Assembly (NCBI GenBank): GCA_015272325.1
Contig: JACYLU010000036.1
Location: forward strand, 62,001-126,000
Origin: Synechococcales cyanobacterium C42_A2020_086
GTDB taxonomy: Bacteria > Cyanobacteriota > Cyanobacteriia > Elainellales > Elainellaceae
Direction: 5' to 3'
DNA: 64,000 nt
Notes under the pieces: generated by a model
What the model was told of the DNA's origin: nothing
The model's database searches: none
What the model saw: the letters and a program-made list of their open reading frames with translations, nothing else
Position numbers and translations under genes: made by a program
In this document: positions 4,568 to 56,437 of the stretch, piece after piece
Layout of the letters: each line of letters begins with the position of its first letter
How positions within the stretch are numbered: the stretch's first letter is position 1

Positions 4568-4960
4568 ATGGCTACCAGTCGGCGAGTGGCTCGCGTGGCA
4601 GAGCTGATCAAACGAGAAGTCAGTCAGCTGTTATTTTCTGGTATTAAAGATGACCGAGTCGGTACGGGCATGGTTAGCGTCACAGATGTGGATGTCTCGG
4701 GCGATCTGCAGCACGCTAAGATTTTCGTCAGCATATACGGCAGCGATGAAGCCCGTGCTGAAACCATGGCAGGGCTAAAATCTGCCACAGGTTATGTCCG
4801 CAGTGAGCTGGGGCAGCGGATCCGTCTGCGGCGCACCCCGGAAATTATTTTTCTCGAAGACCGCTCGATTGAACGGGGCACGAAGGTTCTGTCGCTGATT
4901 AACCAGCTCAGCCAAGAGCGCAAGCTGATGGATGATCTGGACGCCACTGAAGACACCTAA
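4568..4960 (+). CDS. rbfA: Ribosome-binding factor A
   Basis: RbfA is a KH-fold factor that helps mature the 16S rRNA 5' end and the 30S subunit, notably in the cold. The 130-residue protein has the family's N-terminal [18 protein letters not shown], the central [20 protein letters not shown] and the C-terminal [24 protein letters not shown] stands 6 nt before the ATG. The TAA lies in a 13-bp tandem duplication shared with the start of the next gene, from which it is separated by 12 nt. Confidence 0.95.
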
Positions 4961-4973
4961 TGAAGACACCTAA
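4948..4973. repeat. Exact 13-bp tandem duplication at the rbfA stop / glycosidase start
   Basis: TGAAGACACCTAA occurs twice without a gap. The first copy carries the rbfA stop. The second copy repeats the TAA, and its last base is the A of the downstream gene's ATG. Confidence 0.95.
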
Positions 4974-6652
4974 TGACAGCCAGTGAGTATCAGGCGATGG
5001 GAGGGCTGCCGCACTGGAGCACCCTGTCGTTACCTCACCAGGTTGCCCAGCTCATTGTGGTGCGGGCATCGGGCTACCTGTTCGATCATCAGATCCAGTA
5101 CCCCGAGTGGGAACCGCCAGCAGCGGTGTTGCAGCACTGGCTTTCGAATCTGGGGATGGGCGGCGTGATTTTGCTAGGCGGCAGTGCTGTCGAGGTGGCA
5201 TCGCGGACGCGGCAGTTGCAGGATTGGGCGACGGTGCCCTTGCTGATTGCGGCAGATATTGAAGAAGGCGTGGGACAGCGATTTAGTGGAGCGACCGGGT
5301 TTCCGCCGCCAATGGCCCTTGGGGCGATCGCTCAACGAGATCTCCATGCCGCCACAACCTACGCCGAAGCCATGGGGGCAATCACTGCTGAGGAGGCCAG
5401 GGCCATTGGCATTAACTGGCTGCTAGCTCCGGTGGTGGATGTTAACAATAATCCTGAAAACCCGGTAATCAATGTCCGCGCTTGGGGAGAAACCCCAGAG
5501 CAGGTCAGCCAGCTCACTACGGCATTTCTCCGGGGCACAAAGCAAGTGCTGACGACGGCTAAACATTTTCCTGGCCACGGCGACACAGCCACCGATTCTC
5601 ATCTTGACCTGCCCGTGATTCCCCACGATAAAGCGCGGCTAATGCAGATCGAGTTGCCGCCTTTTCAGCAGGCTATTGCGGCTGGAGTCGATGCGGTGAT
5701 GACAGCTCATCTGCATCTGCCGGCCCTCGATCCGGTCTATCCGGCTACTCTGTCGCCCGCTCTCCTCACTGGGGAACTGCGGCAGCGGTTAGGCTTCAAG
5801 GGTTTGATTGTCACCGATGCGCTGGTCATGGGAGCGATTGCCCACCGCTATGGAGCCAACGAAGCGCCAGTGTTGGCCCTGGAAGCCGGAGCCGATATTG
5901 TGCTGATGCCGGTCGATCCGGTGGGAGCGATTGAGGCAATCTGTGCAGCGGTAGAGAGCGGACGCATCCCGGTGGAGCGAATCCATGCTTCATTGGAGCG
6001 ACTCTGGCGAGCCAAACAGAGGGTTTGCTCTCCGTTCATCTTTGGCGACCCGCCCCACGCTAGGCAGCAGACTCCTCCGCCAATGGCAATCGAGGCTCTG
6101 GCGCGTCCCCAAGCCCTGACCACCGCTTCCGCGATGTTGCGCGACTCGATGCAGGTCTATCATCCTGAATCGTCGCGACTGCATTCCCGAGAGTCAACCG
6201 ACAAGCACAATCTAATTCTGGTGGATGATGCCTTGAGCTGTAACTTTCTGAGACGACAGGCTCCGGCAATCGCGCTGCCGCAGGAGTGGGGCTACTCGCT
6301 GCAGGTGATCGACAGCTACACGCCGATCAGGATTCAAGAGCAATCGACCCAGCCTCCGTCTGCAACTCTTTTGCAACTATTTATTCGCGGCAATCCCTTT
6401 CGCAGTAGTGCCAATCTCCTAGCATTGGCGCAGCAGTGGCTTATCTATCTGCAACAAACCAATCAACTTCAGGCAGTCGCGATCTACGGCAGCCCCTATG
6501 TGTTGGCGCAGCTTCGTCCGCAAATGCCGCCCGATGTTCCCTACGTCTTCACCTATGGGCAGATGCCGGCAGCGCAGGCAATTGCACTACAGGCGTTGTT
6601 TGCCACCGCTCCTGCGCAGCAGACCAGCCGGCCTCGCGAATTTACAGATTAA
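4973..6652 (+). CDS. Glycoside hydrolase family 3 protein, beta-N-acetylglucosaminidase type
   Basis: The 559-residue protein has a GH3 N-terminal TIM barrel with DIEEGVGQRF near residue 95 and KHFPGHGDTATDSHLDLP near 197, the signature holding the His/Asp pair used by NagZ-type enzymes. The second half (about 360-559) is a weaker GH3 C-terminal-like domain. NagZ enzymes remove GlcNAc from muropeptides in cell-wall recycling; no signal peptide is seen, consistent with a cytoplasmic place. NagZ itself is about 340 residues, so this longer form is not called nagZ. The ATG follows rbfA closely, with no good Shine-Dalgarno, suggesting cotranscription. Confidence 0.85.
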   Translation: MTASEYQAMGGLPHWSTLSLPHQVAQLIVVRASGYLFDHQIQYPEWEPPAAVLQHWLSNLGMGGVILLGGSAVEVASRTRQLQDWATVPLLIAADIEEGVGQRFSGATGFPPPMALGAIAQRDLHAATTYAEAMGAITAEEARAIGINWLLAPVVDVNNNPENPVINVRAWGETPEQVSQLTTAFLRGTKQVLTTAKHFPGHGDTATDSHLDLPVIPHDKARLMQIELPPFQQAIAAGVDAVMTAHLHLPALDPVYPATLSPALLTGELRQRLGFKGLIVTDALVMGAIAHRYGANEAPVLALEAGADIVLMPVDPVGAIEAICAAVESGRIPVERIHASLERLWRAKQRVCSPFIFGDPPHARQQTPPPMAIEALARPQALTTASAMLRDSMQVYHPESSRLHSRESTDKHNLILVDDALSCNFLRRQAPAIALPQEWGYSLQVIDSYTPIRIQEQSTQPPSATLLQLFIRGNPFRSSANLLALAQQWLIYLQQTNQLQAVAIYGSPYVLAQLRPQMPPDVPYVFTYGQMPAAQAIALQALFATAPAQQTSRPREFTD

Positions 6653-6665
6653 ATTTACAGATTAA
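6640..6665. repeat. Exact 13-bp tandem duplication across the glycosidase stop
   Basis: ATTTACAGATTAA is present twice without a gap. The first copy contains the gene's TAA (6650-6652) and the second repeats it out of frame. Confidence 0.95.
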
Positions 6666-7329: not shown

Positions 7330-7355
7330 AGCGTCACTAGAGAGCGTCACTAGAG
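7330..7355. repeat. Exact 13-bp tandem duplication
   Basis: AGCGTCACTAGAG is repeated once directly, upstream of the preferred start of the Moco oxidoreductase. A 13-bp insertion would shift the frame of a longer ORF, which supports the shorter start. Confidence 0.9.
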
Positions 7356-7440
7356 AAGGTGACAGGTACCCATCATCCATACTGCTCGGACACCAGCACG
7401 TTCCAGTAACCCCCTAGCCATCACTGTAGCAAAGGCAGAG

Positions 7441-15024: not shown

Positions 15025-15050
15025 GCTCAAAACCCTGGCTCAAAACCCTG
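15025..15050. repeat. Exact 13-bp tandem duplication
   Basis: GCTCAAAACCCTG occurs twice without a gap in the ndhH upstream region. Confidence 0.95.
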
Positions 15051-17771: not shown

Positions 17772-17805
17772 AAAGCACAGTGAACGGCAAAGCACAGTGA
17801 ACGGC
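17772..17805. repeat. Exact 17-bp tandem duplication
   Basis: AAAGCACAGTGAACGGC occurs twice without a gap, between the ABC ATPase and the membrane glycosyltransferase. It creates two possible GTG starts, neither likely to be used. Confidence 0.95.
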
Positions 17806-22592: not shown

Positions 22593-22618
22593 CTTCAATC
22601 GACTGCTTCAATCGACTG
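22593..22618. repeat. Exact 13-bp tandem duplication
   Basis: CTTCAATCGACTG occurs twice without a gap. Confidence 0.95.
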
Positions 22619-32481: not shown

Positions 32482-33036
32482 ATGACTTCTGCACCGCATC
32501 AAACCCACTTGTTGATTATCGAAGATGACAAGGGACGCCGGGAATACACCCTGGACAGCCCGGTCTATTCGATTGGCAGAGATCCCAAGTGTGACATTCG
32601 ATTGGTGTCTCAATTTGTCTCTCGTCGCCATGCTACGTTGGTCCAGCTTCCCAATGAAGATGGCAGCTATTACTACCGCATCGTAGATGGCAATCTGAAG
32701 GGCAAACCCAGCGCTAATGGGTTACTCATCAACGGTCGCAAGCTGCAGGCCCACGATTTACATGACCAAGACAAGATCATTTTCGGTCCGCAGGTGCAGG
32801 CCGTGTATTATTTGCTGAAGCGCGATGCCATTACCACTGTACCGCCGGACGAATATGATATTACCCTGATCAGCCCCAACATGACTGGCGACCCCGAGGA
32901 TGAAGATGAGGATGAAGATCCCGAGGATGAGGATCCAGTAGCGGTTACCGGTCCCGCCCCAGAGGGTCGAGAAGATCTACAAGAAGATCTAGAAGTAGAT
33001 TTTGGCGGCAACTCAGGATTCTATCGTCCGAATTGA
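32482..33036 (+). CDS. FHA-domain protein with acidic tail
   Basis: The 184-residue protein has an N-terminal forkhead-associated domain (about 8-115) with YSIGRDPKCDIRL, SRRHATL and ANGLLINGRKL, the phosphothreonine-binding signature. The tail is very acidic (DPEDEDEDEDPEDEDP) with a 12-bp tandem duplication at 32896-32919. It probably reads a Ser/Thr kinase signal; no kinase is nearby. Confidence 0.92.
   Translation: MTSAPHQTHLLIIEDDKGRREYTLDSPVYSIGRDPKCDIRLVSQFVSRRHATLVQLPNEDGSYYYRIVDGNLKGKPSANGLLINGRKLQAHDLHDQDKIIFGPQVQAVYYLLKRDAITTVPPDEYDITLISPNMTGDPEDEDEDEDPEDEDPVAVTGPAPEGREDLQEDLEVDFGGNSGFYRPN
32896..32919. repeat. Exact 12-bp tandem duplication in coding sequence
   Basis: GAGGATGAAGAT occurs twice without a gap and encodes part of the acidic tail of the FHA protein. 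The frame is kept. Confidence 0.9.
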
Positions 33037-33135: not shown

Positions 33136-33423
33136 CTACTCAAAGTGATAGTGCTTCGTCACATCTTGGCGAATCGTCCAGGTGCAGCTCATGCCGGCTG
33201 GGAAGGTAACGAGATCGCCTTTGCCCATGGACACCGGGGTGCCACCATCAGGGGTGACTATCACCTCACCCTCCAAGAAATAGCAGGTTTCCTGCTGGTC
33301 ATAGCTCCAGGGAAACTCGGAGGCTTCTTTGCGCCAGATCGGCCATTGCCAAACGCCAAGCTGCTGCAAGCGCTCGGGGCTAGGCTGGTGTTCAATTTGA
33401 ATCGGCTGGATTTGAGACGGCAT
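33136..33423 (-). CDS. Small cupin-domain protein
   Basis: The 95-residue protein is one cupin barrel: CYFLEGEVIVTPDGGTP (motif 1-like) and GDLVTFPAGMSCTW (motif 2-like), of the DUF861/EutQ-like type. The metal ligands are partly replaced, and the function is unknown. Its 5' part (32 codons) is duplicated upstream in the 253-bp tandem repeat. It likely followed the dehydrogenase gene in one operon before the duplication. Confidence 0.85.
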   Translation of the reverse strand: MPSQIQPIQIEHQPSPERLQQLGVWQWPIWRKEASEFPWSYDQQETCYFLEGEVIVTPDGGTPVSMGKGDLVTFPAGMSCTWTIRQDVTKHYHFE

Positions 33424-33464
33424 AGGGGATGCTAGAACTTTGACGAAGGGTGCACGGCGAGAAG

Positions 33465-33489
33465 CCTAGGACACTGAATCTGTCCTAGG
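33465..33489. repeat. Perfect 9-bp inverted repeat with 7-nt loop (first copy)
   Basis: CCTAGGACA and TGTCCTAGG flank CTGAATC. The same element at 33718-33742 overlaps the dehydrogenase stop codon. It could act as a weak hairpin between genes, but no T tract follows. Confidence 0.8.
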
Positions 33490-33676
33490 ACATTGATCTG
33501 GGCTGAACCGCTACTCGCAAAGCCGAGTAGTCAGCATCAGCCAGTCCAAGGGCACAGGCTCTCTCTAGAATCTGCCGTACTTTGCGCCAGATCGGCCATT
33601 GCCAAACGCCAAGCTGCTGCAAGCGCTCGGGGCTAGGCTGGTGTTCAATTTGAATCGGCTGGATTTGAGACGGCAT
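33485..33676 (-). pseudogene. Chimeric cupin-dehydrogenase ORF created by the duplication
   Basis: The 63-codon ORF joins the first 32 residues of the cupin (to PIWRK) in frame to the last 31 residues of the dehydrogenase (VRQILERACALGLADADYS and on). It is a by-product of the 253-bp duplication. It carries the cupin's own start region, so it could be translated, but lacks a complete domain and is unlikely to be functional. Confidence 0.85.
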
Positions 33677-33717
33677 AGGGGATGCTAGAACTTTGACGAA
33701 GGGTGCACGGCGAGAAG

Positions 33718-33742
33718 CCTAGGACACTGAATCTGTCCTAGG
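33718..33742. repeat. Perfect 9-bp inverted repeat with 7-nt loop (second copy)
   Basis: This is the same hairpin as at 33465-33489. Here its stem contains the TAG stop of the full-length dehydrogenase gene (33738-33740, minus strand). Confidence 0.8.
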
Positions 33743-34604
33743 ACATTGATCTGGGCTGAACCGCTACTCGCAAAGCCGAGTAGTCAGCATCAGCCAGTCC
33801 AAGGGCACAGGCTCTCTCTAGAATCTGCCGTACTCCCTCTAGGCTGTCAACCTGAAGCCCGGCAGTAACCGCTTCCTTCAAAAAGAGGTTGGTATCCTTC
33901 AGCAGGTGCTTGGTAGGGAAATTGGGATTGGCATAGTTTCCTTCCAGCATACGTTGCAGCTTCTTATCAAACGTTGGGGCATAGAGGGCGCTATGGCGCA
34001 GAATCTCCATGAAGCGGTCTACCGGAACCCCATATTGCTGCACAAAGCTGAGGCTGCTGGCAAAAGCGGTAGTCAGCGAGGCAATCAACTGATTTAGCGC
34101 TAGCTTCAGAGCGGCAGCCGTTCCTACAGGACCAATGAGCTGCGGTGTCCCCATCAACTGCAATACCGGCAGCCATTGCTGAAACTGCTCGGGGGTACTG
34201 CCCACCATGATTTGTAGTTGACCGGCTTGAGCTTCGGGAATGCTGCCCAGCACTGGAGCCTCGAAATAATCCGCTCCATCTGCGGTAAAGTCTTCCTGCA
34301 AACAGCAACTTTCGCTTGGCGCAATAGTGCCCATCTGGATCACTGTATGCTGAGGAAGTAGCGGCCGTACCGTGTCGTTTAACAACAGCTCGCGGATAGC
34401 AGCCGCATCCGTCAACATCAAGATCACGACCTGACATTGCGGCAGTAGCTCTGCGACCGATTCAGCCACGACAGCACCTGCCTGCCGCAGTGGTTCTAGT
34501 TTTGCGGGCGTGCGGTTGTAAGCGACCAGAGGGAAGTTGCCCTGCAGCAGTCGGTGTGCCATCGGTACACCCATTAGTCCAGTTCCGATCCAACCAATAT
34601 TCAC
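33738..34604 (-). CDS. NAD(P)-dependent beta-hydroxyacid dehydrogenase (3-hydroxyisobutyrate dehydrogenase family)
   Basis: The 288-residue protein has the Rossmann start IGWIGTGLMGVPMAHRLL, ADYFEAPVLGS (substrate loop), GTAAALKLALNQLI with the catalytic Lys, and the C-terminal LLKDTNLFLKEA. It belongs to the family of 3-hydroxyisobutyrate, tartronate semialdehyde and glyoxylate/succinic semialdehyde reductases; substrate specificity is undetermined. Its last 31 codons are present a second time in the 253-bp duplication, but the gene itself is intact. Confidence 0.9.
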   Translation of the reverse strand: MNIGWIGTGLMGVPMAHRLLQGNFPLVAYNRTPAKLEPLRQAGAVVAESVAELLPQCQVVILMLTDAAAIRELLLNDTVRPLLPQHTVIQMGTIAPSESCCLQEDFTADGADYFEAPVLGSIPEAQAGQLQIMVGSTPEQFQQWLPVLQLMGTPQLIGPVGTAAALKLALNQLIASLTTAFASSLSFVQQYGVPVDRFMEILRHSALYAPTFDKKLQRMLEGNYANPNFPTKHLLKDTNLFLKEAVTAGLQVDSLEGVRQILERACALGLADADYSALRVAVQPRSMS

Positions 34605-56411: not shown

Positions 56412-56437
56412 TAAGCTTATCGGGTAAGCTTATCGGG
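56412..56437. repeat. Exact 13-bp tandem duplication
   Basis: TAAGCTTATCGGG occurs twice without a gap. Just before it the stop region of the GGCT-like gene shows a looser 16-bp repeat (GTTCAGTAAGC/GTTCAGTCAGC). Confidence 0.95.

What the first reader, a model, noticed from the sequence alone, without database searches (positions are those of the whole stretch)
33327..33832. Perfect 253-bp tandem duplication fusing a cupin 5' end to a dehydrogenase 3' end
Two identical 253-bp copies with only 2-3 bp of junction homology lie between an intact dehydrogenase and an intact cupin. The duplication leaves both parent genes whole and makes a 63-codon in-frame chimera between them. It captures a gene fusion event at birth and may be the same process as the short duplications on a larger scale.
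Basis: seen in the sequence. Interest (0 to 1): 0.65.

Follow-up and report, generated by a model that had tools for sequence, protein, structure and literature searches.

The report
Fresh 253-bp duplication between two genes
A 253-base stretch spanning the gap between two neighbouring cyanobacterial genes has been copied once, head to tail, leaving both genes whole and a short hybrid reading frame between them; it looks like an ordinary recent copying accident, but checking it showed that this genome also carries a separate, much commoner class of 9-16-base duplications whose ends match the cutting preference of topoisomerase I.

Summary
In detail: two identical 253-bp copies abut at 33327-33579 and 33580-33832, with 2 bp (CT) of junction homology, and occur nowhere else in the genome. 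The cyanobacterium carries a gene pair, dehydrogenase then cupin, conserved in relatives with a single junction. Deleting one copy restores it exactly (61-bp spacer), so the window shows a derived, very young, homology-poor tandem duplication. Because the unit runs from inside one gene across the spacer into the next, both genes stay whole and a 63-codon chimera (32 cupin + 31 dehydrogenase residues) is a by-product, in frame one time in three. It contains neither domain; no function is indicated. 'Gene fusion at birth' is overstated; a real full-length fusion of this pair exists in Oculatella. Misassembly cannot be excluded without reads.

The suggested link to short duplications was tested. 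Those are abundant (457 perfect pairs of 9-40 bp in 2.02 Mb), old and new, mostly without microhomology. Their edges carry C at -4 (42% vs 23%, p=1e-19), paired on the same strand at both edges (37% vs 5-12%): the cleavage preference of type IA topoisomerase, echoing the E. coli topA R168C mutator. The 253-bp copy lacks this mark. The finding is ordinary; the by-product is interesting.

The parts
33327..33579 (.). copy 1 of the 253-bp tandem duplication
33580..33832 (.). copy 2 of the 253-bp tandem duplication, identical to copy 1; CT at 33833-33834 extends the match by 2 bp
33738..34604 (-). intact dehydrogenase of the 3-hydroxyisobutyrate / 2-hydroxy-3-oxopropionate reductase superfamily (288 aa, GTG start); its last 31 codons lie in copy 2
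   Evidence: no NCBIfam equivalog cut-off reached, so substrate unknown
33485..33676 (-). 63-codon chimeric ORF: cupin residues 1-32 joined to dehydrogenase residues 258-288
   Evidence: no Pfam or NCBIfam match
33136..33423 (-). intact EutQ-like cupin (Cupin_3, 95 aa)
33677..33737 (-). 61-bp spacer, dehydrogenase to chimera (copy 2)
33424..33484 (-). 61-bp spacer, chimera to cupin (copy 1), identical to the other
33465..33489 (.). CCTAGGACA-N7-TGTCCTAGG inverted repeat at the stop codon (copy 1), inside an older imperfect 18/19-bp tandem repeat (33465-33500)
   Evidence: TRF; hairpin, z -1.2, not unusual
33718..33742 (.). the same inverted repeat in copy 2 (imperfect repeat 33718-33753)

Best explanation
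A single, recent, homology-poor (2-bp) tandem duplication of 253 bp across the junction of a conserved dehydrogenase-cupin gene pair. Shown: identity of the copies, single-copy ancestral arrangement in relatives, exact restoration of that arrangement when one copy is removed, both parent ORFs whole. Inferred: it arose by illegitimate joining between sister strands or by template switching at replication. It survives because any tandem duplication that starts in one gene and ends in the next leaves both genes intact, and it will probably be lost again by recombination between its 253-bp copies. The chimeric ORF is a passive by-product, with the cupin's own upstream 61 bp in front of it; at most it yields a short unstable peptide. 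It is probably not the same event class as the abundant 9-16-bp duplications of this genome, which carry a topoisomerase IA-like edge signature.
For: Copies identical, 2-bp homology only. Only two copies in a 5.93-Mb, 38-contig assembly, well inside a 410-kb contig. In many relatives the dehydrogenase is followed by a single cupin, with variable spacers of -10 to +105 bp. Removing one copy gives dehydrogenase, 61 bp, cupin, both ORFs intact. The only other perfect tandem duplications over 40 bp found in 2.02 Mb (66 and 89 bp) also span 5' gene ends or intergenic DNA and have no microhomology. A finished single-contig relative, G002, holds a comparable 64-bp perfect one, so such events are not confined to draft assemblies. 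Few diverged long tandem pairs turned up, mostly in repeat-protein-like arrays, as expected if long ones are short-lived.
Against: No reads and no sister strain of the same genus, so neither the junction nor its copy number can be verified. Absence of aged long tandem duplications would also fit assembly artefacts.
Confidence: 0.74

Rival explanations
1. Assembly artefact: two overlapping contig ends were joined without merging, or a low-frequency junction was written into the consensus.
For: Perfect identity, no reads available, draft genome of 38 contigs, hardly any aged counterparts of this size.
Against: No N, far from contig ends, length 253 matches no usual k-mer; a de Bruijn assembler would need real junction k-mers (general knowledge). 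A similar perfect 64-bp event is in a finished genome.
Confidence: 0.17
2. Same process as the abundant 9-16-bp duplications (type IA topoisomerase double cleavage of one strand), far tail of its size range.
For: Also homology-poor; same genome with a very high rate of such events.
Against: No placement of the 253-bp edges has C at -4 on the same strand at both ends, nor do the 66- and 89-bp ones; perfect ones of 30-65 bp are missing. Three cases only: 63% of short ones also lack the full paired mark, so this is weak.
Confidence: 0.08
3. The chimera or the duplicated spacer is selected: a new peptide, or altered translation of the cupin.
For: In-frame ORF with the same 5' context as the cupin.
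Against: No domain, low-confidence model, in-frame by 1/3 chance, single genome, no promoter-like site in the region.
Confidence: 0.03

Closest known systems
Spontaneous small tandem duplications in bacteria by illegitimate (short-homology or no-homology) joining
   Same: Head-to-tail copy, 2-bp junction homology, parents intact, novel junction ORF.
   Different: Caught by sequence only; rate and reversal not measured.
De novo tandem duplications of the E. coli topA R168C mutator (Bachar et al. 2019, PMC6954433)
   Same: For the 9-16-bp duplications of this genome: same size range (2-19 bp there), head-to-tail, independent of existing repeats.
   Different: Here in a natural genome whose main TopA keeps the residues equivalent to R168, R169, R173 and Y177, and with a C(-4) edge signature that the E. 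coli study did not report. The 253-bp copy does not show the signature.
Natural dehydrogenase-cupin fusion in Oculatella sp. LEGE 06141 (L038 / L017)
   Same: Same two genes in one reading frame.
   Different: Full-length in-frame fusion of about 383 residues in gene order, no duplication, no truncated chimera.

Membership tests
Recent tandem duplication (illegitimate) | Abutting, identical copies of a stretch present once in relatives | tested here: met
Recent tandem duplication (illegitimate) | Little or no junction homology | tested here: met
   2 bp
Recent tandem duplication (illegitimate) | Junction present in the DNA of the strain | not testable with these tools
   needs reads or PCR
Topoisomerase IA-type short tandem duplication | Length within about 2-20 bp | tested here: not met
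   253 bp; range 2-19 bp in PMC6954433
Topoisomerase IA-type short tandem duplication | C at -4 on the same strand at both edges | tested here: not met
   all three placements; feature seen in 37% of short ones against 5-12% in shifted controls
Functional gene fusion | Domains of both parents retained | tested here: not met
Functional gene fusion | Expressed product | not testable with these tools
   no RNA or protein data

The most novel reading that the evidence does not exclude
Around this finding, not at it: this cyanobacterial lineage accumulates thousands of homology-free 9-16-bp tandem duplications made by type IA topoisomerase cutting one strand twice about a helical turn apart (C at -4 at both cuts) and joining the wrong ends. 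It would be a natural, long-running topoisomerase mutational signature, of which the 253-bp copy might be a far tail.
Probability: 0.55. Interest if true: 0.68.

Novelty: new member of a known kind. Interest (0 to 1): 0.38.

Why it matters
Taken alone, the 253-bp copy is a clean example of how a duplication across a gene boundary makes a chimeric ORF without damaging either gene. The control work matters more: Bachar et al. (PMC6954433) write that the mechanism of de novo tandem repeat formation remains unknown, and found no common sequence motif in the E. coli hotspots. A paired, same-strand C(-4) signature in a wild genome would tie it to topoisomerase I cleavage and can be tested directly.

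Tried and rejected
Replication slippage between existing repeats for the short duplications: rejected for most, since match extension beyond two copies is near chance, with a minority tail of longer arrays. Transposon target-site footprints: lengths vary 9-17 bp, so no fixed target duplication. Ku-dependent end joining: no Ku hit in the genome, though the control search rang in only one genome. Loss of Pol I 5' nuclease (flap ligation): domain present in all 30 genomes. Staggered cuts on opposite strands: opposite-strand C(-4) pairs are depleted, same-strand ones enriched. Flank similarity to the unit as cause of the pairing: excess identity is found mainly at -4; in the subset without flank similarity the trend stays but is weaker (p=0.005 for one strand, p=0.15 for the other). 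The spacer hairpin is not unusually stable. Changed TopA pocket as cause of the high rate: main TopA keeps R-R-x-x-D-R-x-x-G-Y in G000 and G008. Several literature searches on bacterial short tandem duplications gave nothing usable.

Full report
Observation. The repeat is real and perfect in the sequence: 33327-33579 and 33580-33832 are identical, with the match running 2 bp further. It occurs nowhere else in the 5.93-Mb, 38-contig genome. In ten simulated windows with the same short-range composition no exact tandem pair longer than 9 bp occurred.

Anatomy. All genes involved read on the minus strand: dehydrogenase (33738-34604; NAD_binding_2 and NAD_binding_11), a 63-codon chimera (33485-33676), and a Cupin_3 protein (33136-33423). 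NCBIfam places the dehydrogenase near 2-hydroxy-3-oxopropionate reductase and 3-hydroxyisobutyrate dehydrogenase, but below every equivalog cut-off, so its substrate is unknown. The spacers on both sides of the chimera are the same 61 bp. Deleting one copy leaves dehydrogenase, 61 bp, cupin, both intact.

Relatives. No genome of the same genus was found among those searched. In the family and class, the dehydrogenase is often followed at once by one cupin of 60-76% identity, with spacers from -10 to +105 bp. The duplicated state is therefore derived. In Oculatella sp. LEGE 06141 (L038, also G001/L017) dehydrogenase and cupin form one open frame in gene order, a full-length fusion as far as the sequence shows, reached without any such duplication.

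Chimera. It carries cupin residues 1-32 and dehydrogenase residues 258-288. Cupin_3 covers residues 20-92 of the cupin, so only about the first 13 residues of that domain are kept. The chimera matches no family, and AlphaFold from a single sequence gives mean pLDDT 63 and pTM 0.31. The frame is open to the dehydrogenase stop in one of three phases, so openness is no evidence of selection.

Age and reality. Zero differences over 253 bp means very young, still exchanging, or artificial. In 2.02 Mb of the same genome there are only three perfect tandem duplications above 40 bp: 66, 89 and 253 bp, with extensions of 0, 0 and 2 bp. The 66- and 89-bp ones also cover 5' gene ends or intergenic DNA. 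Diverged long ones are few and mostly look like repeat-protein arrays (not each inspected). Rapid loss by recombination explains that, but so would artefact. Against artefact: a comparable 64-bp case in the single-contig genome G002, position well inside a contig, and a length unlike common k-mers.

Is it the short-duplication process? The window has many exact 9-17-bp tandem pairs. In the sampled 2.02 Mb, 457 perfect pairs of 9-40 bp were counted, most frequent at 10-11 bp outside ORFs, mostly multiples of three inside ORFs, with match extension near chance for most, that is, no microhomology. Pairs with 1-3 mismatches are about as numerous and far above Markov expectation, so the process is old and continuing, not an assembly effect. 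Density outside ORFs (perfect at 10-11 bp, up to one mismatch from 12 bp): 122 per 100 kb here, 150 in the finished genome G008, 37 in G002, 23 across 80 other loci (nearly all cyanobacterial), 0 in 20 kb of E. coli non-ORF DNA, a small control.

Edge signature. Among 242 clean pairs, the base four positions outside the duplicated unit is C in 41.7% against 23.1% background (p = 1.3e-19). Position -5 is C-poor (p = 1.6e-4); no other flanking position is enriched for C. The same preference is seen in ORF and non-ORF subsets, and at smaller n (p = 0.016 and 0.0096) in other cyanobacteria, though not at the outer -4 position in the 16 pairs of G008 or the 6 of G002. C(-4) marks at both edges on the same strand occur in 36.8% of pairs; frames shifted by 2-12 bp give 4.5-12.4%. 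Part of that excess is the raised C frequency itself; the co-occurrence beyond it is 50 versus 36.4 expected (p = 2.6e-4) and 41 versus 30.2 (p = 0.003), while opposite-strand pairs are depleted. In the subset with no flank similarity the pairing weakens (p = 0.005 and 0.15). A preference for C four nucleotides upstream of the cut is a known property of type IA topoisomerase I (review PMC7587558). E. coli topA R168C makes de novo tandem duplications of 2-19 bp independent of repeats, and its authors found no motif (PMC6954433). The main TopA of this genome and of G008 keeps the RRxxDRxxGY residues of the C pocket. A second TopA-like protein here (L257:5405-7618) has T and K in place of R169 and R173 (read by eye against the motif). 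Inference: two same-strand cuts about one helical turn apart, with the 3' end from the downstream cut joined to the 5' end of the upstream cut on a sister strand, would give such duplications. That step is not shown.

The 253-bp edges do not show this signature in any of their three placements, nor do the 66- and 89-bp ones. With three cases and 37% penetrance this is weak evidence, but together with the gap in sizes it favours a separate origin.

Verdict. Observation confirmed; interpretation partly supported. An ordinary young tandem duplication (misassembly about 17%), with a passive chimeric ORF. The short-duplication signature deserves its own follow-up.

Noticed in passing
genome-wide; in the window e.g. 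4948-4976, 6639-6665, 7330-7356, 15025-15050, 22593-22618, 56412-56437, 17772-17805: Very many perfect, homology-free tandem duplications of 9-17 bp, with C at -4 on the same strand at both edges, as for topoisomerase IA cleavage; aged copies also abundant.
   Followed up: partly
L038:5001-6150 (also L017): Natural full-length in-frame fusion of the same dehydrogenase and cupin in Oculatella sp. LEGE 06141.
   Followed up: partly
L257:5405-7618: Second TopA-like protein in this genome with T and K at the positions of E. coli R169 and R173, the pocket that reads the -4 cytosine; a second match to the family also occurs in many relatives.
   Followed up: no
L161:10037-10214 and L245:18061-18192: Perfect 89-bp and 66-bp tandem duplications spanning 5' gene ends or intergenic DNA, no microhomology.
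   Followed up: partly
33465-33500 and 33718-33753: Older imperfect 18/19-bp tandem repeat at the dehydrogenase stop codon, nested in the 253-bp unit and forming an inverted repeat CCTAGGACA-N7-TGTCCTAGG.
   Followed up: partly
32890-32934: FHA-domain protein (32482-33036) with an acidic tail coded by short imperfect GAGGATGAAGAT repeats.
   Followed up: no
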